Shown here: positions 2,789 to 11,152 of the stretch, one piece after another
Layout: each line of letters begins with the position of its first letter
Numbering within the stretch: position 1 is the stretch's first letter
Source of the DNA: Allorhizocola rhizosphaerae
GTDB lineage: Bacteria > Actinomycetota > Actinomycetes > Mycobacteriales > Micromonosporaceae
Direction: 5' to 3'
Assembly (NCBI RefSeq): GCF_003426775.1
Contig: NZ_QJUG01000082.1
Coordinates: 1 to 33,478 of the forward strand
Length of the DNA stretch: 33,478 nt
Program-made: the position numbers and the translations under genes
The notes under the pieces: generated by a model
Database searches by the model: none
What the model was told of the DNA's origin: nothing
What the model saw: only the letters and a program-made list of their open reading frames with translations

Positions 2789-3225
2789 AAACACTGCCCA
2801 CTGTGGAGGATACCGTCGCGTTTGGACGGCGGCTGGCGAGCGTGCTGCGCGCCGGGGATCTGGTCATCCTCAACGGGCCGCTGGGCGCCGGCAAAACCGC
2901 GCTCACGCAAGGGATCGGGACGGGGCTCGGTGTCAGCGGTGAGGTCACCTCGCCGACCTTCGTGATCGCACGGGTGCACCGCGGGCCGCTGCCGCTGGTA
3001 CACGTCGACGCCTATCGCCTGCAGGGATTCGAAATCGACGACCTGGATCTGGACGCGTCGGTGGAAGATTCTGTCACCGTGGTGGAATGGGGTTCCGGCA
3101 AGGTCGAGCGGCTGTCGGATTCCTATTTGGAGGTACGAATCGAGCGCCGCGATGACGACACCCGCCTCGTGGAGCTGGTTGGCCACGGGGGCGACTGGGA
3201 TACGCGGGTGGAGTCGTTGCGGTGA
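2782..3225 (+). CDS. tsaE: TsaE, tRNA t6A biosynthesis ATPase
   Basis: P-loop ATPase that works with TsaB and TsaD in t6A37 synthesis. The 147-residue product contains Walker A GPLGAGKT (32-39), the family motif TSPTF (56-60), HVDAYRL (74-80) and VEWG (101-104). ATG 2782 is chosen because it overlaps the upstream TGA (ATGGTGA), has GGAG 4 nt ahead, and gives the family's normal length; an upstream in-frame start at 2737 would lie deep inside the hydrolase gene. Its stop overlaps the next gene's GTG by 2 bp (GTGA). The partner tsaB is not downstream as usual but about 2.2 kb upstream on the other strand. Confidence 0.94.
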   Translation: MVKTLPTVEDTVAFGRRLASVLRAGDLVILNGPLGAGKTALTQGIGTGLGVSGEVTSPTFVIARVHRGPLPLVHVDAYRLQGFEIDDLDLDASVEDSVTVVEWGSGKVERLSDSYLEVRIERRDDDTRLVELVGHGGDWDTRVESLR

Positions 3226-4456: not shown

Positions 4457-5861
4457 TGACAGCGCGCAAAGCGGAGGCCACATCGACCGCTGTCACCGGA
4501 CCGCCCTCGGCCGCCAGCCGCCCCGCCTGGCCATGCACGTATGTGGCCATGACCGCCGCGCGCACCGGGGACAGACCCGATGCGAGCAGCGAACCGAGCA
4601 GGCCACCGAGCACATCCCCGGTGCCGCCCGTGGCGAGATCGGGTGTGCCGGTCGGGTTGACCCACGCCTCCCCACCCGGCGACGCGATGATCGTCCGGTA
4701 TCCCTTGAGCACGACGGTCGCCCGTGTCCACGTGGCCAGCTTGAGCGCCGCGCCCACCCGGTCCGGGCCCGGCGACTCGCCGGCCAGGCGGGCAAACTCC
4801 CGGTCGTGCGGGGTCAGGATGGTGGGCGCGTCACGCCGGCGCAGCTCCCCGGCCATCGATCCGTCGACAAGCATCGTTATCGCGTCGGCGTCGAGCACCA
4901 CCGGCACCGGTGAGGCCAGCACCGATCGCAGCTCAGCACCCGCTTCAGGGGTCATGCCCAGGCCGCTCCCGCACACCCAAGCCTGCACCCGCTTCGCATC
5001 GGCGACGCGCGGGGCCGTCACCACCGAGGGATGGGCCGCGACCACCATTTCGTGCGCGCCGCCCGCATAGCGCACCAACCCGGCGGGCCCCACCAGCGCG
5101 CCCGCCACCGAAAGCAGCGCAGCCCCCGGATAGTCCGCCGATCCGGTCGCCAGCCCCACCACACCACGCGTGTACTTATCCGAATCGATGTGCGGGCGAG
5201 GCCACCACGCCTTGATGTCCATGGCGTCGGCGATGTGCAGGGCGGGACTGCCGCGCAGCCACGGCCCGAGCCCGATGTCGACCAGCTCGACCTGGCCCGC
5301 ATGCGCCACTGCCGGCCCGACCACGAGCGCGGGTTTGAGGCAGCCAAACGTCACGGTGACGTCAGCCCGGACGGCCGTGCCCGGCACGTCTCCCGTGTCC
5401 ACTTCCACGCCCGACGGGATATCGACCGCGACTATGGGCACGCCCTCCGGTACATCCTCCACAAGAGACAGTGCCGTGCCGCGCAACGGTCCAGTGGCGC
5501 CAATGCCCAGCAGCCCGTCAATAATCAAATCAATCTTTTGAGGGTACGCGGTGAGCACCCGCCCGCCGCGGGCCAAAAGCGCGCGGAGCCCCTGCTGATG
5601 CGCTCGCGCAGGATCGGAGAGCAACGCCGACACGGCCGCTCCGCGCCCGGCCAGCAGCGCACCGGCAAACAGCGCGTCGCCGCCGTTGTTGCCCGGCCCC
5701 ACAAGCAGCACGACCCGCGAGCCGGAAACCCGTTCAAGGCTGAGCGCCGCCCTCCTGGCCAGCCCGAAGGCGGCACGCTGCATCAGCGTGCCGTCGGGCA
5801 CGGTACGCATCAACAGCTCCTCGGCGGTCCGGACCTCACCCGCGCGATACACGGACCTCAT
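4425..5861 (-). CDS. nnr: Bifunctional NAD(P)HX epimerase/dehydratase
   Basis: Repairs hydrated NAD(P)H: the N-terminal YjeF domain epimerises R- and S-NAD(P)HX and the C-terminal ribokinase-like domain dehydrates S-NAD(P)HX using ADP. The protein is 478 residues, a normal fused length. The N-terminal half shows [34 protein letters not shown] and [14 protein letters not shown]. The C-terminal half shows [34 protein letters not shown] and [17 protein letters not shown], the nucleotide-binding signature. ATG 5861 overlaps the acpS stop (ATGA), so the two are coupled. The last codons are duplicated just downstream (see repeat 4350-4456). Confidence 0.94.
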
Positions 5862-6314: not shown

Positions 6315-7247
6315 GTGCGAACACTCGTTGTCGAACCAGAAGTCCTTGCCCGCGTGGCGGATCGCCTCGATGCCATCGCCGATCGCCCGCCCGTGCACCT
6401 GCCCGCGCTGCGGGCGTGTCTAGCGGAGCTCGAGCCGGCGTGGTCAGGCACCGCCGCAGCGGCCGCCTGCGCCCGCCTCCGGCAACTGATCGGGCTCTGC
6501 CCCGAACCTCCGCTCGACCTGTTGCCGGCGCAGGAACGCGACCGGCTCAACCGCGAGCGCTATCCGGGCGGCATCCCGTTTCTCGACCGTTCGGATGCGC
6601 TGCTGCTTTCGTATTCCGAGGAGGGCGATGGGCGGTTGGTCGTCTCCTTCGGCGATCCCGACACGGCGCGCAATATCGTGACGTATGTGCCGGGCATGGG
6701 CAGCTCGCTACACGATAGCGCGGGCGAGCTCGAACGGGCCGTGGCGCTGCGCGAGCGGGCTGGGCCCGACACCGCGGTCGTGATGTGGCTCGACTACGAC
6801 GCGCCCGACTTCGCCGATGCCGTCCTGCTGAAGTCCGCGCGCGAGGGTGCGGAGGCCTTGCGCCGCTTTCAGGCCGGGCTGGAGGCCAATCACACCGGTG
6901 AGATTGGACAGCGCACCATCATCGGCCACTCCTACGGTTCGGTTGTCGTGGGTCTCGCGGAGCGCGAGGGCGATCTCATCGCCGACGACATCGTGGCCCT
7001 CGGTTCGCCGGGCATGGGTGTGCCCACCGCATCCGACCTCCGCGACCCGTCGCAGGTGTGGGCCAGCACCGCCCGCAACGACCCCATCCGCCTCGTGCCC
7101 GGCTTCCTTCTCGGTCGCGACCCAGACAGTCCTCGCTTCGGCGCGCAGCGGTTCGAGTCTGCCCCCATGGGCCACTCCGGCTACTTCCGCCCCGACAACC
7201 CGGCCCTGGACACCCTCGCCAAAATCGCCACCATCGGCACCGCTTGA
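6315..7247 (+). CDS. Alpha/beta hydrolase, DUF1023-type
   Basis: A 310-residue actinobacterial protein with an N-terminal helical region (about 1-90) followed by a hydrolase domain of the DUF1023 type. Key elements are VTYVPGMGSSLHDS near 120 (the family's oxyanion region), VVMWLDYDAPD, the nucleophile elbow TIIGHSYGSVVVG with S206, IVALGSPGMG, and a late histidine H287 in PMGHSGYF. GTG 6315 is the only start codon in frame near the point where homology begins; the open frame runs further upstream but there it is antisense to acpS/nnr. No signal peptide is seen. The natural substrate is unknown. Its TGA overlaps the -35 of the following promoter. Confidence 0.78.
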   Translation: MRTLVVEPEVLARVADRLDAIADRPPVHLPALRACLAELEPAWSGTAAAAACARLRQLIGLCPEPPLDLLPAQERDRLNRERYPGGIPFLDRSDALLLSYSEEGDGRLVVSFGDPDTARNIVTYVPGMGSSLHDSAGELERAVALRERAGPDTAVVMWLDYDAPDFADAVLLKSAREGAEALRRFQAGLEANHTGEIGQRTIIGHSYGSVVVGLAEREGDLIADDIVALGSPGMGVPTASDLRDPSQVWASTARNDPIRLVPGFLLGRDPDSPRFGAQRFESAPMGHSGYFRPDNPALDTLAKIATIGTA

Positions 7248-7272
7248 CACATCGACCTAGTCGATGTAATTT
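7244..7272 (+). promoter_or_regulatory. Consensus sigma-70 promoter with palindromic operator in the spacer
   Basis: TTGACA (7244-7249), a 17-bp spacer and TAATTT (7267-7272) form one of the best -35/-10 pairs in the window. The spacer is filled by the perfect inverted repeat ACATCGAC-CTA-GTCGATGT (7249-7267), touching both hexamers. A dimeric repressor bound there would block RNA polymerase. The regulator is not identifiable; no divergent regulator gene is adjacent. Confidence 0.75.
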
Positions 7273-7304
7273 GCTCATTCGTAAGCCACAAACGGGGAGG
7301 CCTG

Positions 7305-7379
7305 ATGACCAACACGGTTGCCGGCGGCTCGCCGGATCTGGTTTACTCGGTATCAATGTTCCCCGCCGTCGGAGCTTAG
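7305..7379 (+). CDS. Candidate 24-residue peptide
   Basis: ATG 7305 follows GGGGAGG (7294-7300, 4 nt away), a strong ribosome-binding site in a window where many genes lack one. It is about 26 bp after a consensus promoter. The product begins MTNTVAGGSPDLVY and ends SVSMFPAVGA, with a polar first half and a hydrophobic second half; it has no Cys, no charged cluster and no signal peptide. The stop codon lies in a terminator hairpin, so promoter, RBS, ORF and terminator form one complete unit. It could be a leader peptide, a small functional peptide, or the stub of a longer deleted gene. I do not recognise the family. Confidence 0.5.
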   Translation: MTNTVAGGSPDLVYSVSMFPAVGA

Positions 7380-7399
7380 CTCTCACTGGCGGGGCTTTT
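7361..7399 (+). terminator. Intrinsic terminator overlapping the small ORF's stop
   Basis: CCCCGCC (7361-7367) pairs with GGCGGGG (7388-7394); inside it GAGC-TTA-GCTC (7372-7382) forms a second stem. CTTTTC follows. The small ORF's TAG (7377-7379) sits in the inner loop, so a translating ribosome would disrupt the hairpin; that would also suit an attenuator. Confidence 0.65.
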
Positions 7400-7423
7400 C
7401 ATTGCCCTGGTCCGCGTCGCCTA

Positions 7424-7770
7424 TTGTTGAAGTGATCGCCCGCCCCTTGAAATATCCGCGCGGCTGGCCCGATCGTTGCCCGCCCGGCACGCGACCCCAG
7501 GAGAAGGGAATCGACGTCGCGTTGGCGGTGGACTTCACTGCCATGGCGCTTCTGAAGCGATACGACGTCGGCATTCTGTTCTCCACCGATACCGACATGC
7601 AATACGCGCTGGAGTTTGTGGCCTCGAAGACCGAAGCTCGCCCCGAGGTCTCCGCGTGGCGTGGTAACCGCTCGCGGCTGGAGATCAAGGACAAGAAGCT
7701 TTGGTGCCACTGGATCCGCGAGTCGGTCTACCGTCAGGTCGCAGATCCCACGTGCTATTCGAAGGCCTAA
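7424..7770 (+). pseudogene. 5'-truncated NYN-domain (PIN-like) protein
   Basis: The frame ending at TAA 7768-7770 encodes the C-terminal part of a NYN (LabA/DUF88-like) protein. ARPLKYPRGWP leads to QEKGIDVALAVDFTAMALLKRYDVGILFSTDTDMQYALEFV, which contains the conserved acidic KGIDVALAVD and STDTD motifs of this PIN-like nuclease fold, and then to LWCHWIRESVYRQVADPTCYSK at the end. The N-terminal region, which should supply the first acidic active-site residue, is missing: upstream lies a terminator and an unrelated 24-codon ORF. There is no good RBS or start before the homology begins. I read it as a remnant; a short expressed C-terminal product is not excluded. Confidence 0.7.
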
Positions 7771-7773
7771 GTG

Positions 7774-7804
7774 CCGCCCGCCCACCGATTTGGTGGGCGG
7801 GCGG
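7774..7804. terminator. Bidirectional terminator between the NYN remnant and the cellulase
   Basis: CCGCCCGCCCACC (7774-7786) and GGTGGGCGGGCGG (7792-7804) form a perfect 13-bp stem with loop GATTT. It lies between two convergent stop codons (7770 and 7815), so it can serve both strands. Confidence 0.8.
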
Positions 7805-7814
7805 TTGGTTGCGT

Positions 7815-9905
7815 TTACGTGGTGGAGCCGGTGACGGAGATGCCGTTCTTGGTCACGTAGTAGGTGACCGTGGCACCCGACCAGAAGTGGAAGGTCAACG
7901 TCACCCGCGCACCATCGTTCACCTCATTGAAAAACGCCGTCGTCAACGTGATGTTGCCCGCGCTGTAATTCGGCGCGAACGTCACATCAAACTCCTTAAA
8001 CGACGTCCAATTGTGCGGCCCCGCATTGCTGCCATCGGCATACTTGGCCTCCATCGTGGCCAACACATCACCCCGGAACGTCGCCGGAATCGCCAACCCG
8101 CTCGTGGAACCCGAAACGTTCTGCAGCTGCGGCACGTCATAGGTCATGATGTTCACCCGCCACGGCACGCCCTGCGAGAACACCAAATGCACCGTCGCGT
8201 TCACGCCGTAGGCACGGCTGCCCGACAGCCGGGTCAGCGCCGCCGCCGTGAAGGTGAGCTGGCTGCCCGACACCGTGTAGTCGCTGCCTTGGGCCAGGTT
8301 GGTCGACCCCTGCCGCACCGCGGTCAGGGTGGTGCCGTTGAGGTTCAGCGTGAGCGATTTGGCCGTGATCGACTGCGACCGCACGTTGAACACCTGGTCG
8401 GAAGACGCCGTCCCCGAACGCACCGTCCAGCTGGACTTGATCTGGTTGAACAGCTCCGGATCCGACCACTGGAACGACGTCCGGCCCAAATGCTGCCCGT
8501 TGTCCCACCACATCGTCGTGATCCGACGCTGCCGCGCGTAATACCCGAAGTACTCGAAGAACTTGAGCTTCTCTCCCTGCTGCACCGTACCGGTGTGCCG
8601 GTCGAAACCCAGCAACCCGTACTCACCCAAAATCACCGGGATGTTGCGGGAGATGAACGTGTTGTAGACCCGGTCAAAACGAGCCGTCAGATCATTTTGC
8701 ACCTCAGCGTTGTACCGGGTGTAGCCGGCCACGTTCACACTGAACGGCCAGAAACCGTAGTTGTGCACCGTAGCCACCAGGTTACGGTCGTTGAGCGCGG
8801 TGATGGTGGCCGCCAGCGAGTCCAGCGGCGCCTGTTCCTCCGACGTGTGCAACGAAGGCAACACCAGCAACCGAGACGCGTTGTTCCCACCCGACTGGCG
8901 CACGATCCGATGGAACGACCGGTTGAGCTCGTCGAGCAACTGGAACTCCTGCTGCTCACCCGAACTCCCGGTGAACTGCGGCTCGTTGATGCTCTCCAAC
9001 AACAACTTCGACGACGAATTACGGAACGTCGCCGCGATCTGCGTCCACAACGCGTTGAACCGGTTCAGCACGTTGGTGCGGTCGCCGGGCATGTTGTTGA
9101 CCCACTGCCACGAATCGTGATGCACGTTGAGCAGCACATACAGGTCGGCGGCCAGCGCCCAGTCCACGACCTCCTTGACCCGGTTCATGTACGCGGTCTC
9201 GACCGTGTAGCCGGGTGCGCCGCCCTGATGCTGACCCCACGTCACCGGAATCCGGATGCTCTTGAAGCCTTGGGTCTTCACATTGTTGATCAGCGCCTGC
9301 GTGATCCGCGGATTGCCCCACGACGTCTCATCGGAACCCGTCGAGTCCAACGAGTTCCCCAGGTTCCACCCGGGCTGCATCGCCGCCACCACCTGCATTG
9401 GGTTGCCTACCGGGGGCGGGCTGGAGGGAGGCGGGCTGGACGACGGCGGCGTGCTCGGCGATGGCGAGCCCACATTGCCGTCACACGTCGTGCCGTTGAG
9501 CGTGAACGATGTCGGGTTGGTGTTGCTGCCCGACCAGGAACCGTTGAAGCCGAACGAGACCTTGCCATTGGTCGGGATCGACGCGTTGTAGGACATGTTC
9601 GTGGCCGTGACCGTGGCCGCCGGTTGGGTGTGCGTGGCGCTCCAGATGTTGGTGATGCGCTGCCCGTTGGCGAACGTCCACACCAGATTCCAGCCGTTGA
9701 TGGGGTCGCCGAGGTTGGTGATCTCAACGTTTGCCGAAAAGCCACCGGGCCATTGATTTGGTACCGAATAGGCGACCCGGCATCCGGCCGCCGCATAGGC
9801 ATTGCCGCCGATGGTGAGCCCGGCACCGGCCACGAGGACGGCAACGCCGCCGGCGATCAGGCTCGCCCTCCACCGGGCAGAGCGCGGGACTTGCTTAACC
9901 GTCAT
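7815..9905 (-). CDS. Secreted multidomain endo-beta-1,4-glucanase, CBM2-GH5-X2-CBM46
   Basis: A 696-residue exported cellulase. A signal peptide occupies 1-39 (RWRASLIAGG basic/hydrophobic part, cleavage near AYA-AAG). CBM2 spans about 41-141, with the C42/C141 disulfide pair and aromatic residues W52, W72, W88 and W124. A Pro/Ser linker runs 146-168. The GH5 domain covers about 170-495: PGWNLGNSLDS, RIPVTW, VHHD, the acid/base E308 in ESINEPQ and the nucleophile E428 in ILGEYG. The motifs resemble GH5 subfamily 4, which acts on beta-1,4-glucans and xyloglucan. A CBM_X2-like Ig domain (about 505-590, GTTLTAV...GSDYTVSGSQL) and a C-terminal CBM46-like domain (about 592-693) follow, the order known from Bacillus Cel5B enzymes. 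A LacI-type gene lies directly upstream. Confidence 0.92.
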   Translation of the reverse strand: MTVKQVPRSARWRASLIAGGVAVLVAGAGLTIGGNAYAAAGCRVAYSVPNQWPGGFSANVEITNLGDPINGWNLVWTFANGQRITNIWSATHTQPAATVTATNMSYNASIPTNGKVSFGFNGSWSGSNTNPTSFTLNGTTCDGNVGSPSPSTPPSSSPPPSSPPPVGNPMQVVAAMQPGWNLGNSLDSTGSDETSWGNPRITQALINNVKTQGFKSIRIPVTWGQHQGGAPGYTVETAYMNRVKEVVDWALAADLYVLLNVHHDSWQWVNNMPGDRTNVLNRFNALWTQIAATFRNSSSKLLLESINEPQFTGSSGEQQEFQLLDELNRSFHRIVRQSGGNNASRLLVLPSLHTSEEQAPLDSLAATITALNDRNLVATVHNYGFWPFSVNVAGYTRYNAEVQNDLTARFDRVYNTFISRNIPVILGEYGLLGFDRHTGTVQQGEKLKFFEYFGYYARQRRITTMWWDNGQHLGRTSFQWSDPELFNQIKSSWTVRSGTASSDQVFNVRSQSITAKSLTLNLNGTTLTAVRQGSTNLAQGSDYTVSGSQLTFTAAALTRLSGSRAYGVNATVHLVFSQGVPWRVNIMTYDVPQLQNVSGSTSGLAIPATFRGDVLATMEAKYADGSNAGPHNWTSFKEFDVTFAPNYSAGNITLTTAFFNEVNDGARVTLTFHFWSGATVTYYVTKNGISVTGSTT

Positions 9906-9989: not shown

Positions 9990-10019
9990 AGACTAAGTTT
10001 GGCGTCCAAACTTTGTCAA
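9990..10019 (-). promoter_or_regulatory. Cellulase promoter with palindromic operator
   Basis: On minus, TTGACA (10019-10014) and TAGTCT (9995-9990) are 18 bp apart. The spacer is almost entirely the perfect inverted repeat AAGTTTGG-CGT-CCAAACTT (9995-10013). Binding there would occlude the promoter. The start codon is about 85 bp downstream. The neighbouring LacI-type protein is a candidate binder, but the site lacks the CG-centred form of many LacI-family operators. Confidence 0.7.
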
Positions 10020-10117: not shown

Positions 10118-11152
10118 TCAGTGCCTCGGCGGTGCCGTGCTTCCACGCACAACAAGCGTGGTCGGCAGCTCGACGCGAATCTGCGGGGGAGTCTGCCCGG
10201 CAATGAGCGTGAGCAGCAGGTCGGCGGCCGCCGCGCCCATCTCGCGGAACGGCTGCCGCACCGTGGTCAGCGGCGGGCCAACCCAGTTCACGTTGTCGAT
10301 GTCATCGAACCCGACCACGCTGAGGTCATCCGGGATGCGCAGTCCAGCCTGACGCGCGGCCTCATAAACGCCGAGCGCCTGCAGATCGTTGCCGCACAGC
10401 ACGGCCGTGGGCGGGTCGGGCAGGCTCAGCAGCTCGCGCCCCAGGGCCACGCCGTCCTCGAAGGAATACTGTCCATTCCGGACGAGTCGCGGATCCATAT
10501 GGACCCCGGCGGTCTCCATCGCGGCACGGCACGCCTCCAGCCGCTCGCGCGCATGCAGATAGACACCCGGGCCGCCGATCACACTGATCCGCCTATGACC
10601 CAGGCTGAGCAGGTGACGCGTCGCGGCGACCGCACCGCTCCAGTTCGCCGCGCCCACCGATGGCGTCTCATGCTCGGGCTGCCCGGCGGGATCCAGTGCC
10701 ACCAAAGGGATCCCGCCCGCCGCCAGCTGCGCCACCTGTTGCGCGGTGAAGTGCGGATGCACGGCGATGACCCCCACCGGCCGCCGGGCGAGCATCTGCT
10801 CGACCCACGACCTTTCCGTGGAGGGAGAAGCCAGCAGATCGGTGAAGCCCACACTGAGATCCTGCCCGCTCACCACGTCCTGCGCACCGCGCATGATCTC
10901 GACCGCGATGTGGGTCAGCACGTGGTAGAAGACGACCTCCACGCCCGACGACGGGACCACCATGGGCGGCCGCTGGTACTGGTGCTCGCGCAGCAGCTCC
11001 TCGATCCGCCGCCGGGTTTCCGTGGCAACGCCCGACCTGCCGTTGAGCACCCTCGACACCGTGGGAGGCGAGACACCGGCCAGCCGCGCGATGGCCGCAA
11101 CCGTCAGCTCACCGCGCCGCCGCCCTCGGCGCGCGGTGGCATCTCCCGGCAT
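10118..11152 (-). CDS. LacI-family transcriptional regulator
   Basis: A 344-residue repressor. The N-terminal LacI-type helix-turn-helix and hinge are clear: LTVAAIARLAGVSPPTVSRVLNGRSGVATETRRRIEELL at about 16-54. The rest is a periplasmic-binding-protein-like sugar-sensing domain with PLVALDPAGQPE, ATRHLLSLGHRRISVIGG, AVLCGNDLQALGVYEAARQAGLRIPDDLSVVGFDDID and PLTTVRQP, all characteristic. ATG 11152 has GAGGAGGG about 11 nt ahead. It lies just upstream of the cellulase on the same strand, so it probably senses a cellulose- or hemicellulose-derived sugar. A palindrome CGAAACGTTTCG sits about 58 bp before its start and could be its own operator. Confidence 0.92.
   Translation of the reverse strand: MPGDATARRGRRRGELTVAAIARLAGVSPPTVSRVLNGRSGVATETRRRIEELLREHQYQRPPMVVPSSGVEVVFYHVLTHIAVEIMRGAQDVVSGQDLSVGFTDLLASPSTERSWVEQMLARRPVGVIAVHPHFTAQQVAQLAAGGIPLVALDPAGQPEHETPSVGAANWSGAVAATRHLLSLGHRRISVIGGPGVYLHARERLEACRAAMETAGVHMDPRLVRNGQYSFEDGVALGRELLSLPDPPTAVLCGNDLQALGVYEAARQAGLRIPDDLSVVGFDDIDNVNWVGPPLTTVRQPFREMGAAAADLLLTLIAGQTPPQIRVELPTTLVVRGSTAPPRH

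What the first reader, a model, noticed from the sequence alone, without database searches (positions are those of the whole stretch)
7244..7399. Complete miniature transcription unit for a 24-residue peptide
A consensus promoter (TTGACA-N17-TAATTT) whose spacer is a perfect 8-3-8 palindrome drives a strong-RBS ORF of 24 codons that ends inside a terminator hairpin. Every part of a regulated gene is present in 156 bp. It could encode a signalling or regulatory peptide, be an attenuator, or be the stub left by a deletion.
Basis: partly seen in the sequence, partly recalled or inferred. Interest (0 to 1): 0.65.

Follow-up and report, generated by a model that had tools for sequence, protein, structure and literature searches.

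The report
RNase-gene leader hairpin beside deletion scar
The supposed tiny peptide gene is most likely a scar, in which an operator-like promoter and a start codon run into the conserved leader hairpin of an RNase-like gene whose front part is gone, and that same hairpin turns up in viruses of related bacteria.

Summary
The "terminator" (7354-7401) is a conserved 5' leader hairpin, usually with a bulged U, that lies just upstream of NYN-domain (putative RNase) genes in relatives. A covariance model built without the window finds it at E=1.5e-8, its only hit in the 8.8-Mb draft genome at E<=1. Directly behind it is the C-terminal part of such a gene (7402-7770); about 81 N-terminal residues, start codon and ribosome-binding site are missing. 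The 24-codon ORF has no recognisable homologue in 354 family genomes, and its stop lies in the hairpin's apical loop. The palindromic promoter is unlikely as chance (about 1e-5, post hoc) but was found nowhere else; it may be the stub of another, lost gene. The peptide is therefore probably incidental. Unexpectedly, the hairpin, without an Rfam match, also occurs in 79 viral contigs and in named actinophages. For the G-version, control patterns without bulge, with bulged A and with a changed inner stem gave 6, 0 and 0 contigs against 36. Its function is inferred only.

The parts
7244..7272 (+). Promoter-like sequence TTGACA-N17-TAATTT; the -35 overlaps the stop codon (7245-7247) of an Abhydrolase_8 gene
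   Evidence: sequence; Abhydrolase_8 PF06259 E=1.6e-29; 1 of 2 TTGACA-N16-18-TANNNT in the window
7249..7267 (+). Perfect 8-3-8 palindrome ACATCGAC-CTA-GTCGATGT, possible operator
   Evidence: the inner 7-3-7 pattern has one exact site in the own genome, 13 others with 1 mismatch
7294..7300 (+). Ribosome-binding-site-like GGGGAGG
   Evidence: sequence
7305..7379 (+). 24-codon ORF, probably incidental
   Evidence: no recognisable homologue
7318..7347 (+). Position of the NYN leader promoter in relatives; here only TTGCCG-N18-TTTACT, perhaps eroded
7354..7401 (+). NYN leader RNA element: hairpin 7361-7394 with bulged U, then a short T-rich tail
   Evidence: model R1 35 bits, E=1.5e-8, window not used for the model; fold
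7402..7770 (+). C-terminal remnant of a NYN-domain gene (model positions 82-203, no internal stop), start codon and N-terminal part missing
   Evidence: Pfam NYN E=7e-5, 23.8 bits, just under Pfam's cut-off of 24.2

Best explanation
The 156 bp is a join of two pieces, not a mini-gene. Shown by comparison: 7354-7401 belongs to a conserved hairpin family found just upstream of NYN-domain genes, and 7402-7770 is the rear part of such a gene without its start, ribosome-binding site and about 81 residues. Shown as sequence only: 7244-7307 is a promoter-like element with a palindrome, a ribosome-binding site and an ATG. Inferred: the palindromic promoter and first codons are the stub of a different, lost, locally regulated gene, and the ORF exists because this stub runs into the leader and meets a TAG in the hairpin loop. 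Inferred: in intact loci the hairpin, about 10 nt behind the expected transcription start, works as an early terminator or protein-binding site that limits NYN expression. In the window it stands before a gene fragment that lacks the front of the domain, including an acidic residue I recall as catalytic in PIN/NYN RNases.
For: Remnant matched in 4 Phytohabitans genomes at 58-62%, whose leaders share promoter position and hairpin. Held-out model hit E=1.5e-8, single in the genome at E<=1. Hairpin in 24 of 29 class-wide NYN loci read and in 6 of 8 plasmid NYN loci that were not used for the model. Paired changes in 5 of 9 pairs, 25 cells against 3.1 in shuffles. Similar decay elsewhere: of 49 strong hairpin sites 10 precede partial and 19 no detectable NYN. 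Remnant and small ORF are in different frames.
Against: The palindrome-promoter combination and the good ribosome-binding site are not explained by the NYN leader, and the lost gene was not identified. 5 of 29 class loci and 2 of 8 plasmid loci with NYN lack the hairpin. The seed leaders were picked by eye for having a hairpin. The deletion junction rests on one draft assembly. The remnant has no internal stop, so it may still be read.
Confidence: 0.72

Rival explanations
1. A genuine regulated small-peptide gene: a repressor binds the palindrome, and the 24-residue peptide is made and ends at its own terminator.
For: Palindrome in the promoter about 1e-5 by chance; good ribosome-binding site; stable hairpin.
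Against: No recognisable homologue in 354 family genomes; the hairpin belongs to NYN leaders; third-position GC of the ORF 0.70 against 0.80 in the neighbouring hydrolase (only 23 codons, weak).
Confidence: 0.12
2. A leader-peptide attenuator: ribosomes on the ORF, whose stop is in the hairpin loop, open the hairpin and let transcription pass into the NYN remnant.
For: Stop codon in the apical loop; T-rich tail; an open frame follows.
Against: The ORF is absent from the four Phytohabitans leaders; what follows is only a gene fragment without its own start.
Confidence: 0.06
3. For the hairpin itself: a generic intrinsic terminator, convergent or copied by chance between NYN leaders and phages.
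For: G+C-rich stem with T-run; in 5 of 19 viral loci examined it lies 14-19 nt after an ORF's stop; one copy is annotated as a terminator in Clavibacter phage CN1A.
Against: The G-version with bulged U is in 36 viral contigs against 6 without bulge, 0 with bulged A and 0 with a changed inner stem; 24 of 25 records searched whole hold one copy; 61 of 374 class genomes have a hit at E<=0.01.
Confidence: 0.35

Closest known systems
NYN-domain (PF01936, LabA/DUF88-like) putative ribonucleases; PADLOC candidate HEC-09
   Same: The intact Phytohabitans protein matches HEC-09 at 5.7e-11 and the window remnant at 1.1e-6; the remnant matches Pfam NYN positions 73-114 at 7e-5
   Different: The window copy lacks the front of the domain; its Pfam score is just under the cut-off; HEC-09 itself is only a candidate, and no test of it was seen
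5' leader attenuators / terminator-like leader RNAs
   Same: Hairpin and T-run between promoter and start codon of one gene family
   Different: No ligand, leader peptide or alternative structure known; shared with phage sites far from any NYN gene
Operator inside a promoter spacer (repressor-controlled promoter)
   Same: Perfect palindrome covering the spacer; same architecture on the minus strand near 9990-10019 in this window
   Different: No intact gene or regulator identified; sequence found nowhere else
RNase Y autoregulation (PMC10303841, listing with start of abstract only)
   Same: Precedent for an RNase that regulates its own transcript
   Different: Different enzyme family; no cleavage of the NYN leader has been shown

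Membership tests
NYN leader hairpin (defined here by model R1) | Match to a model built without the window | tested here: met
   35 bits, E=1.5e-8; only hit in the genome at E<=1
NYN leader hairpin (defined here by model R1) | Bulged U on the 3' side | tested here: met
   U in the window; U in 56 of 60 aligned hairpins, 3 C, 1 A
NYN leader hairpin (defined here by model R1) | Directly followed by an intact NYN gene | tested here: not met
   Only model positions 82-203 follow
NYN leader hairpin (defined here by model R1) | Promoter TTGAC / TANNNT at the usual distance | tested here: not met
   Window has TTGCCG and TTTACT; relatives: TTGAC in 27 of 49, TANNNT in 30 of 49, both in 18, neither in 10
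NYN-domain RNase | Complete domain | tested here: not met
NYN-domain RNase | RNase activity | not testable with these tools
   needs protein
Small-peptide gene | Conserved peptide in relatives | tested here: not met
   354 family genomes, best other match 27 bp at E=6.5e-4 in another gene; no dedicated small-ORF database searched
Small-peptide gene | Transcript and translation | not testable with these tools
   needs RNA-seq and Ribo-seq
Known structured RNA (Rfam 15) | Match to a curated family | tested here: not met
   None in the window at gathering score, none in 7200-7450 at E<=1; five other loci that carry the hairpin gave only a tRNA at E<=0.1
Intrinsic terminator | Stops transcription | not testable with these tools
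   Hairpin plus short T-run only

The most novel reading that the evidence does not exclude
The bulged-U hairpin is a specific, protein-read regulatory RNA motif shared by the leaders of an actinobacterial NYN RNase family (candidate defence genes) and by single sites in many actinophage genomes. A NYN gene behind a phage-type terminator would stay off until a phage anti-termination factor, or titration by phage hairpins, switches it on; or NYN itself cuts the motif in phage transcripts and in its own leader. The window would hold a decayed copy of such an alarm.
Probability: 0.15. Interest if true: 0.85.

Novelty: new variant of a known kind. Interest (0 to 1): 0.5.

Why it matters
The peptide reading would add one more unverified small ORF. 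What matters instead is that the supposed terminator belongs to a conserved hairpin family without an Rfam match, which links a candidate defence RNase, actinobacterial plasmids and many actinophages, and which keeps a bulged U that a plain terminator should not need. If a protein reads it, it offers a direct handle on how a candidate phage-defence gene is kept silent and switched on.

Tried and rejected
Rejected: chance for the hairpin (held-out E=1.5e-8). Rejected: the ORF as the front of the NYN gene (different frame; relatives start NYN downstream of the hairpin). Rejected: a gene fragment in the ORF; a 25-28 nt match to a conserved helicase-like gene (name recalled) recurs in many family genomes and in the own genome, but it is one short stretch. 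Rejected: a strict link to tRNA genes; they occur in only 7 of 79 viral loci, though several hairpins do adjoin tRNAs.

Led nowhere: palindrome promoter in viral contigs (none); window DNA 7230-7800 in plasmids (none); NYN protein in named phages (none); NCBIfam (none); PHROGs (only families of unknown function); solved structures (none); genome-contig scan with NYN patterns (3 loci); four palindrome matches with 3 mismatches, not followed.

Limits: one search listed 33 NYN places in 27 of 394 genomes; I read 30 loci, one the window's own; 5 of the other 29 lack the hairpin by model (L045, L049, L052, L058, L060). The 26 seed leaders (22 class, 4 Phytohabitans) were chosen by eye because they had a hairpin, and two near-duplicates (L051, L062) were dropped before A3 (24 rows). 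Unselected tests are the window, the plasmid loci and the genome scan. Of 17 plasmid records with NYN I fetched 8; the two Mycolicibacterium ones lack the hairpin. 'Strong' means the first 50 rows, window included; some sites counted 'none' still show first NYN codons. Pair counts on A4 lean to the model. Viral pattern scans fix part of the sequence, so only the comparison with controls informs; the A-version has no control, and the 79 contigs hold 48 distinct flanked sequences, many near-identical. Records were chosen because they hold the hairpin.

Literature: (listings with abstract starts) showed no paper on this hairpin; only open-licence PMC papers are held. On HEC-09, searches were listings. 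In PMC8565338 and PMC12988326 I saw passages: the first names Hma a candidate system, the second says several Hma-embedded candidates, HEC-06 among them, showed antiviral activity; 'NYN' occurs in neither text.

Full report
WHAT IS THERE. The -35 overlaps the stop of an Abhydrolase_8 gene. In 300 simulated windows 8-3-8 palindromes and GGAGG-ATG pairs are common, but a palindrome centred in such a promoter is expected about 1e-5 times per window, an after-the-fact figure. The only other TTGACA-N16-18-TANNNT in the window, on the minus strand at 10019, also carries an 8-3-8 palindrome; it lies upstream of a cellulase-like gene and beside a LacI-like regulator (names recalled from the sequences). 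This architecture therefore looks real.

WHAT LIES BEHIND IT. Frame 7402-7770 encodes the C-terminal part of a NYN-domain protein (PF01936 positions 73-114, 23.8 bits against a cut-off of 24.2). Of 300 family genomes, 6 match the remnant: its own, four of one genus at 58-62%, one of another at 34%. That genus is Phytohabitans (equal contig lengths for two of the four), family Micromonosporaceae, so the window is from that family. From the GTG start three of the four genes run over 205 residues; the fourth is frameshifted. In the window model positions 1-81, start codon and ribosome-binding site are missing.

THE TERMINATOR IS THE NYN LEADER. In the Phytohabitans loci TTGAC and TATAAA are followed within about 12 nt by the CCCGCC...GGCGGG hairpin and a T-rich tail, then GGAG and the GTG start (one copy has an exchanged outer pair). 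Class-wide, 27 of 394 genomes have NYN matches at E<=1e-10; of 29 other loci read, 24 have the hairpin (22 by eye; two by model) and 5 do not. A model from 24 leaders, without the window, finds the window hairpin at 35 bits, E=1.5e-8, the only hit in its genome at E<=1. Six of eight plasmid NYN loci, not used for the model, have it 15-45 nt upstream of the annotated start. On 60 aligned hairpins (55 distinct) 98.4% of cells pair, five of nine pairs have double changes, and 25 cells do against 3.1 in shuffles. The bulged base is U in 56 of 60.

WHY THE ORF IS PROBABLY INCIDENTAL. The end of the ORF is leader, and its middle overlies the place where many relatives have the leader promoter. There the window has TTGCCG and TTTACT; of 49 relatives 27 have TTGAC, 30 TANNNT, 18 both and 10 neither, against 1% and 7% in shuffles. 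A 110-bp query (7244-7353) gave matches at E<=1 in 349 of 354 family genomes, but those printed beyond the own locus were short; the best was 27 bp at E=6.5e-4 inside another gene, and a recurrent one lies in a conserved helicase-like gene. I judge these chance. The palindrome pattern is exact once in its genome, and the promoter has no match under 3 mismatches in 354 family genomes. The closest hydrolase relative (61%) shows no NYN gene in the 1.5 kb read downstream. I read 7244 to about 7350 as the stub of another gene, or stray promoter sequence, now abutting the NYN leader. The lost gene was not identified.

RECURRENT DECAY. Model R1 hits 61 of 374 class genomes at E<=0.01. Of the 49 strongest sites outside the window, 16 precede a full NYN frame without stops, 4 a full frame with a stop, 10 a partial one and 19 none that the profile detects, though some of these still show first NYN codons. 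In L025 hairpin and NYN start are parted from the rest of the gene by about 0.9 kb of other sequence. The window is one more case: leader kept, gene broken.

AN UNEXPECTED LINK TO PHAGES. The hairpin occurs in viral contigs: 43 with the A-version and 36 with the G-version of the stem, each confirmed by the model; they hold 48 distinct flanked sequences, many near-identical. G-version controls gave 6 contigs without bulge, 0 with bulged A and 0 with a changed inner stem. BLAST finds it in named phages of Microbacterium, Gordonia, Mycobacterium and Clavibacter (four Caulobacter records match another part of the query). Of 25 records searched whole (6 phages, 5 plasmids, 14 viral contigs, chosen because they hold it) 24 have one copy and one has two in tandem. 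In 5 of 19 viral loci it lies 14-19 nt after an ORF's stop; some adjoin tRNA genes; one is annotated as a terminator. No Rfam family matches. No NYN relative was found in 50,697 phage records.

MECHANISM. Shown: position, structure and conservation of the hairpin, and truncation of the gene. Inferred: early termination or protein binding that limits NYN expression. The NYN proteins match PADLOC's HEC-09 candidate model (5.7e-11 intact, 1.1e-6 remnant), so a defence role is possible but untested. Whether NYN, a host factor or a phage factor reads the motif is open, and a generic terminator stays a serious rival.

VERDICT. Observation confirmed; peptide gene not supported; deletion supported in altered form. 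The peptide is ordinary; the hairpin family is worth following.

Noticed in passing
window 9990-10019, minus strand: A second TTGACA-N-TANNNT promoter with a perfect 8-3-8 palindrome (9995-10013) upstream of a cellulase-like gene (7815-9905 minus) and beside a LacI-like regulator (10118-11152 minus); looks like its operator (gene names recalled).
   Followed up: no
L169-L247 (79 viral contigs); L248-L253 (named actinophages): The bulged-U hairpin of NYN leaders occurs in many actinophage-like genomes, one copy in 24 of 25 records searched whole.
   Followed up: partly
L034 1402-1441 and 2137-2185 minus (G640): One NYN gene has a hairpin both upstream and about 60 nt downstream.
   Followed up: no
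L025 (G129), hairpin at 3078-3118 minus: A NYN gene with the hairpin seems interrupted by about 0.9 kb of other sequence shortly after its start.
   Followed up: no
L235, hairpin at 5091-5131 minus; L253, 2001-2050: Hairpin near a TROVE/Ro-like ORF (L235, name recalled) and about 300 nt behind an annotated 'RNA-binding protein' gene in Mycobacterium phage Krypton555.
   Followed up: no
L135 (G609), hairpin at 1501-1543 minus: A chromosomal hairpin hit lies inside a cluster of five tRNA genes, directly before a tRNA-Gln.
   Followed up: no
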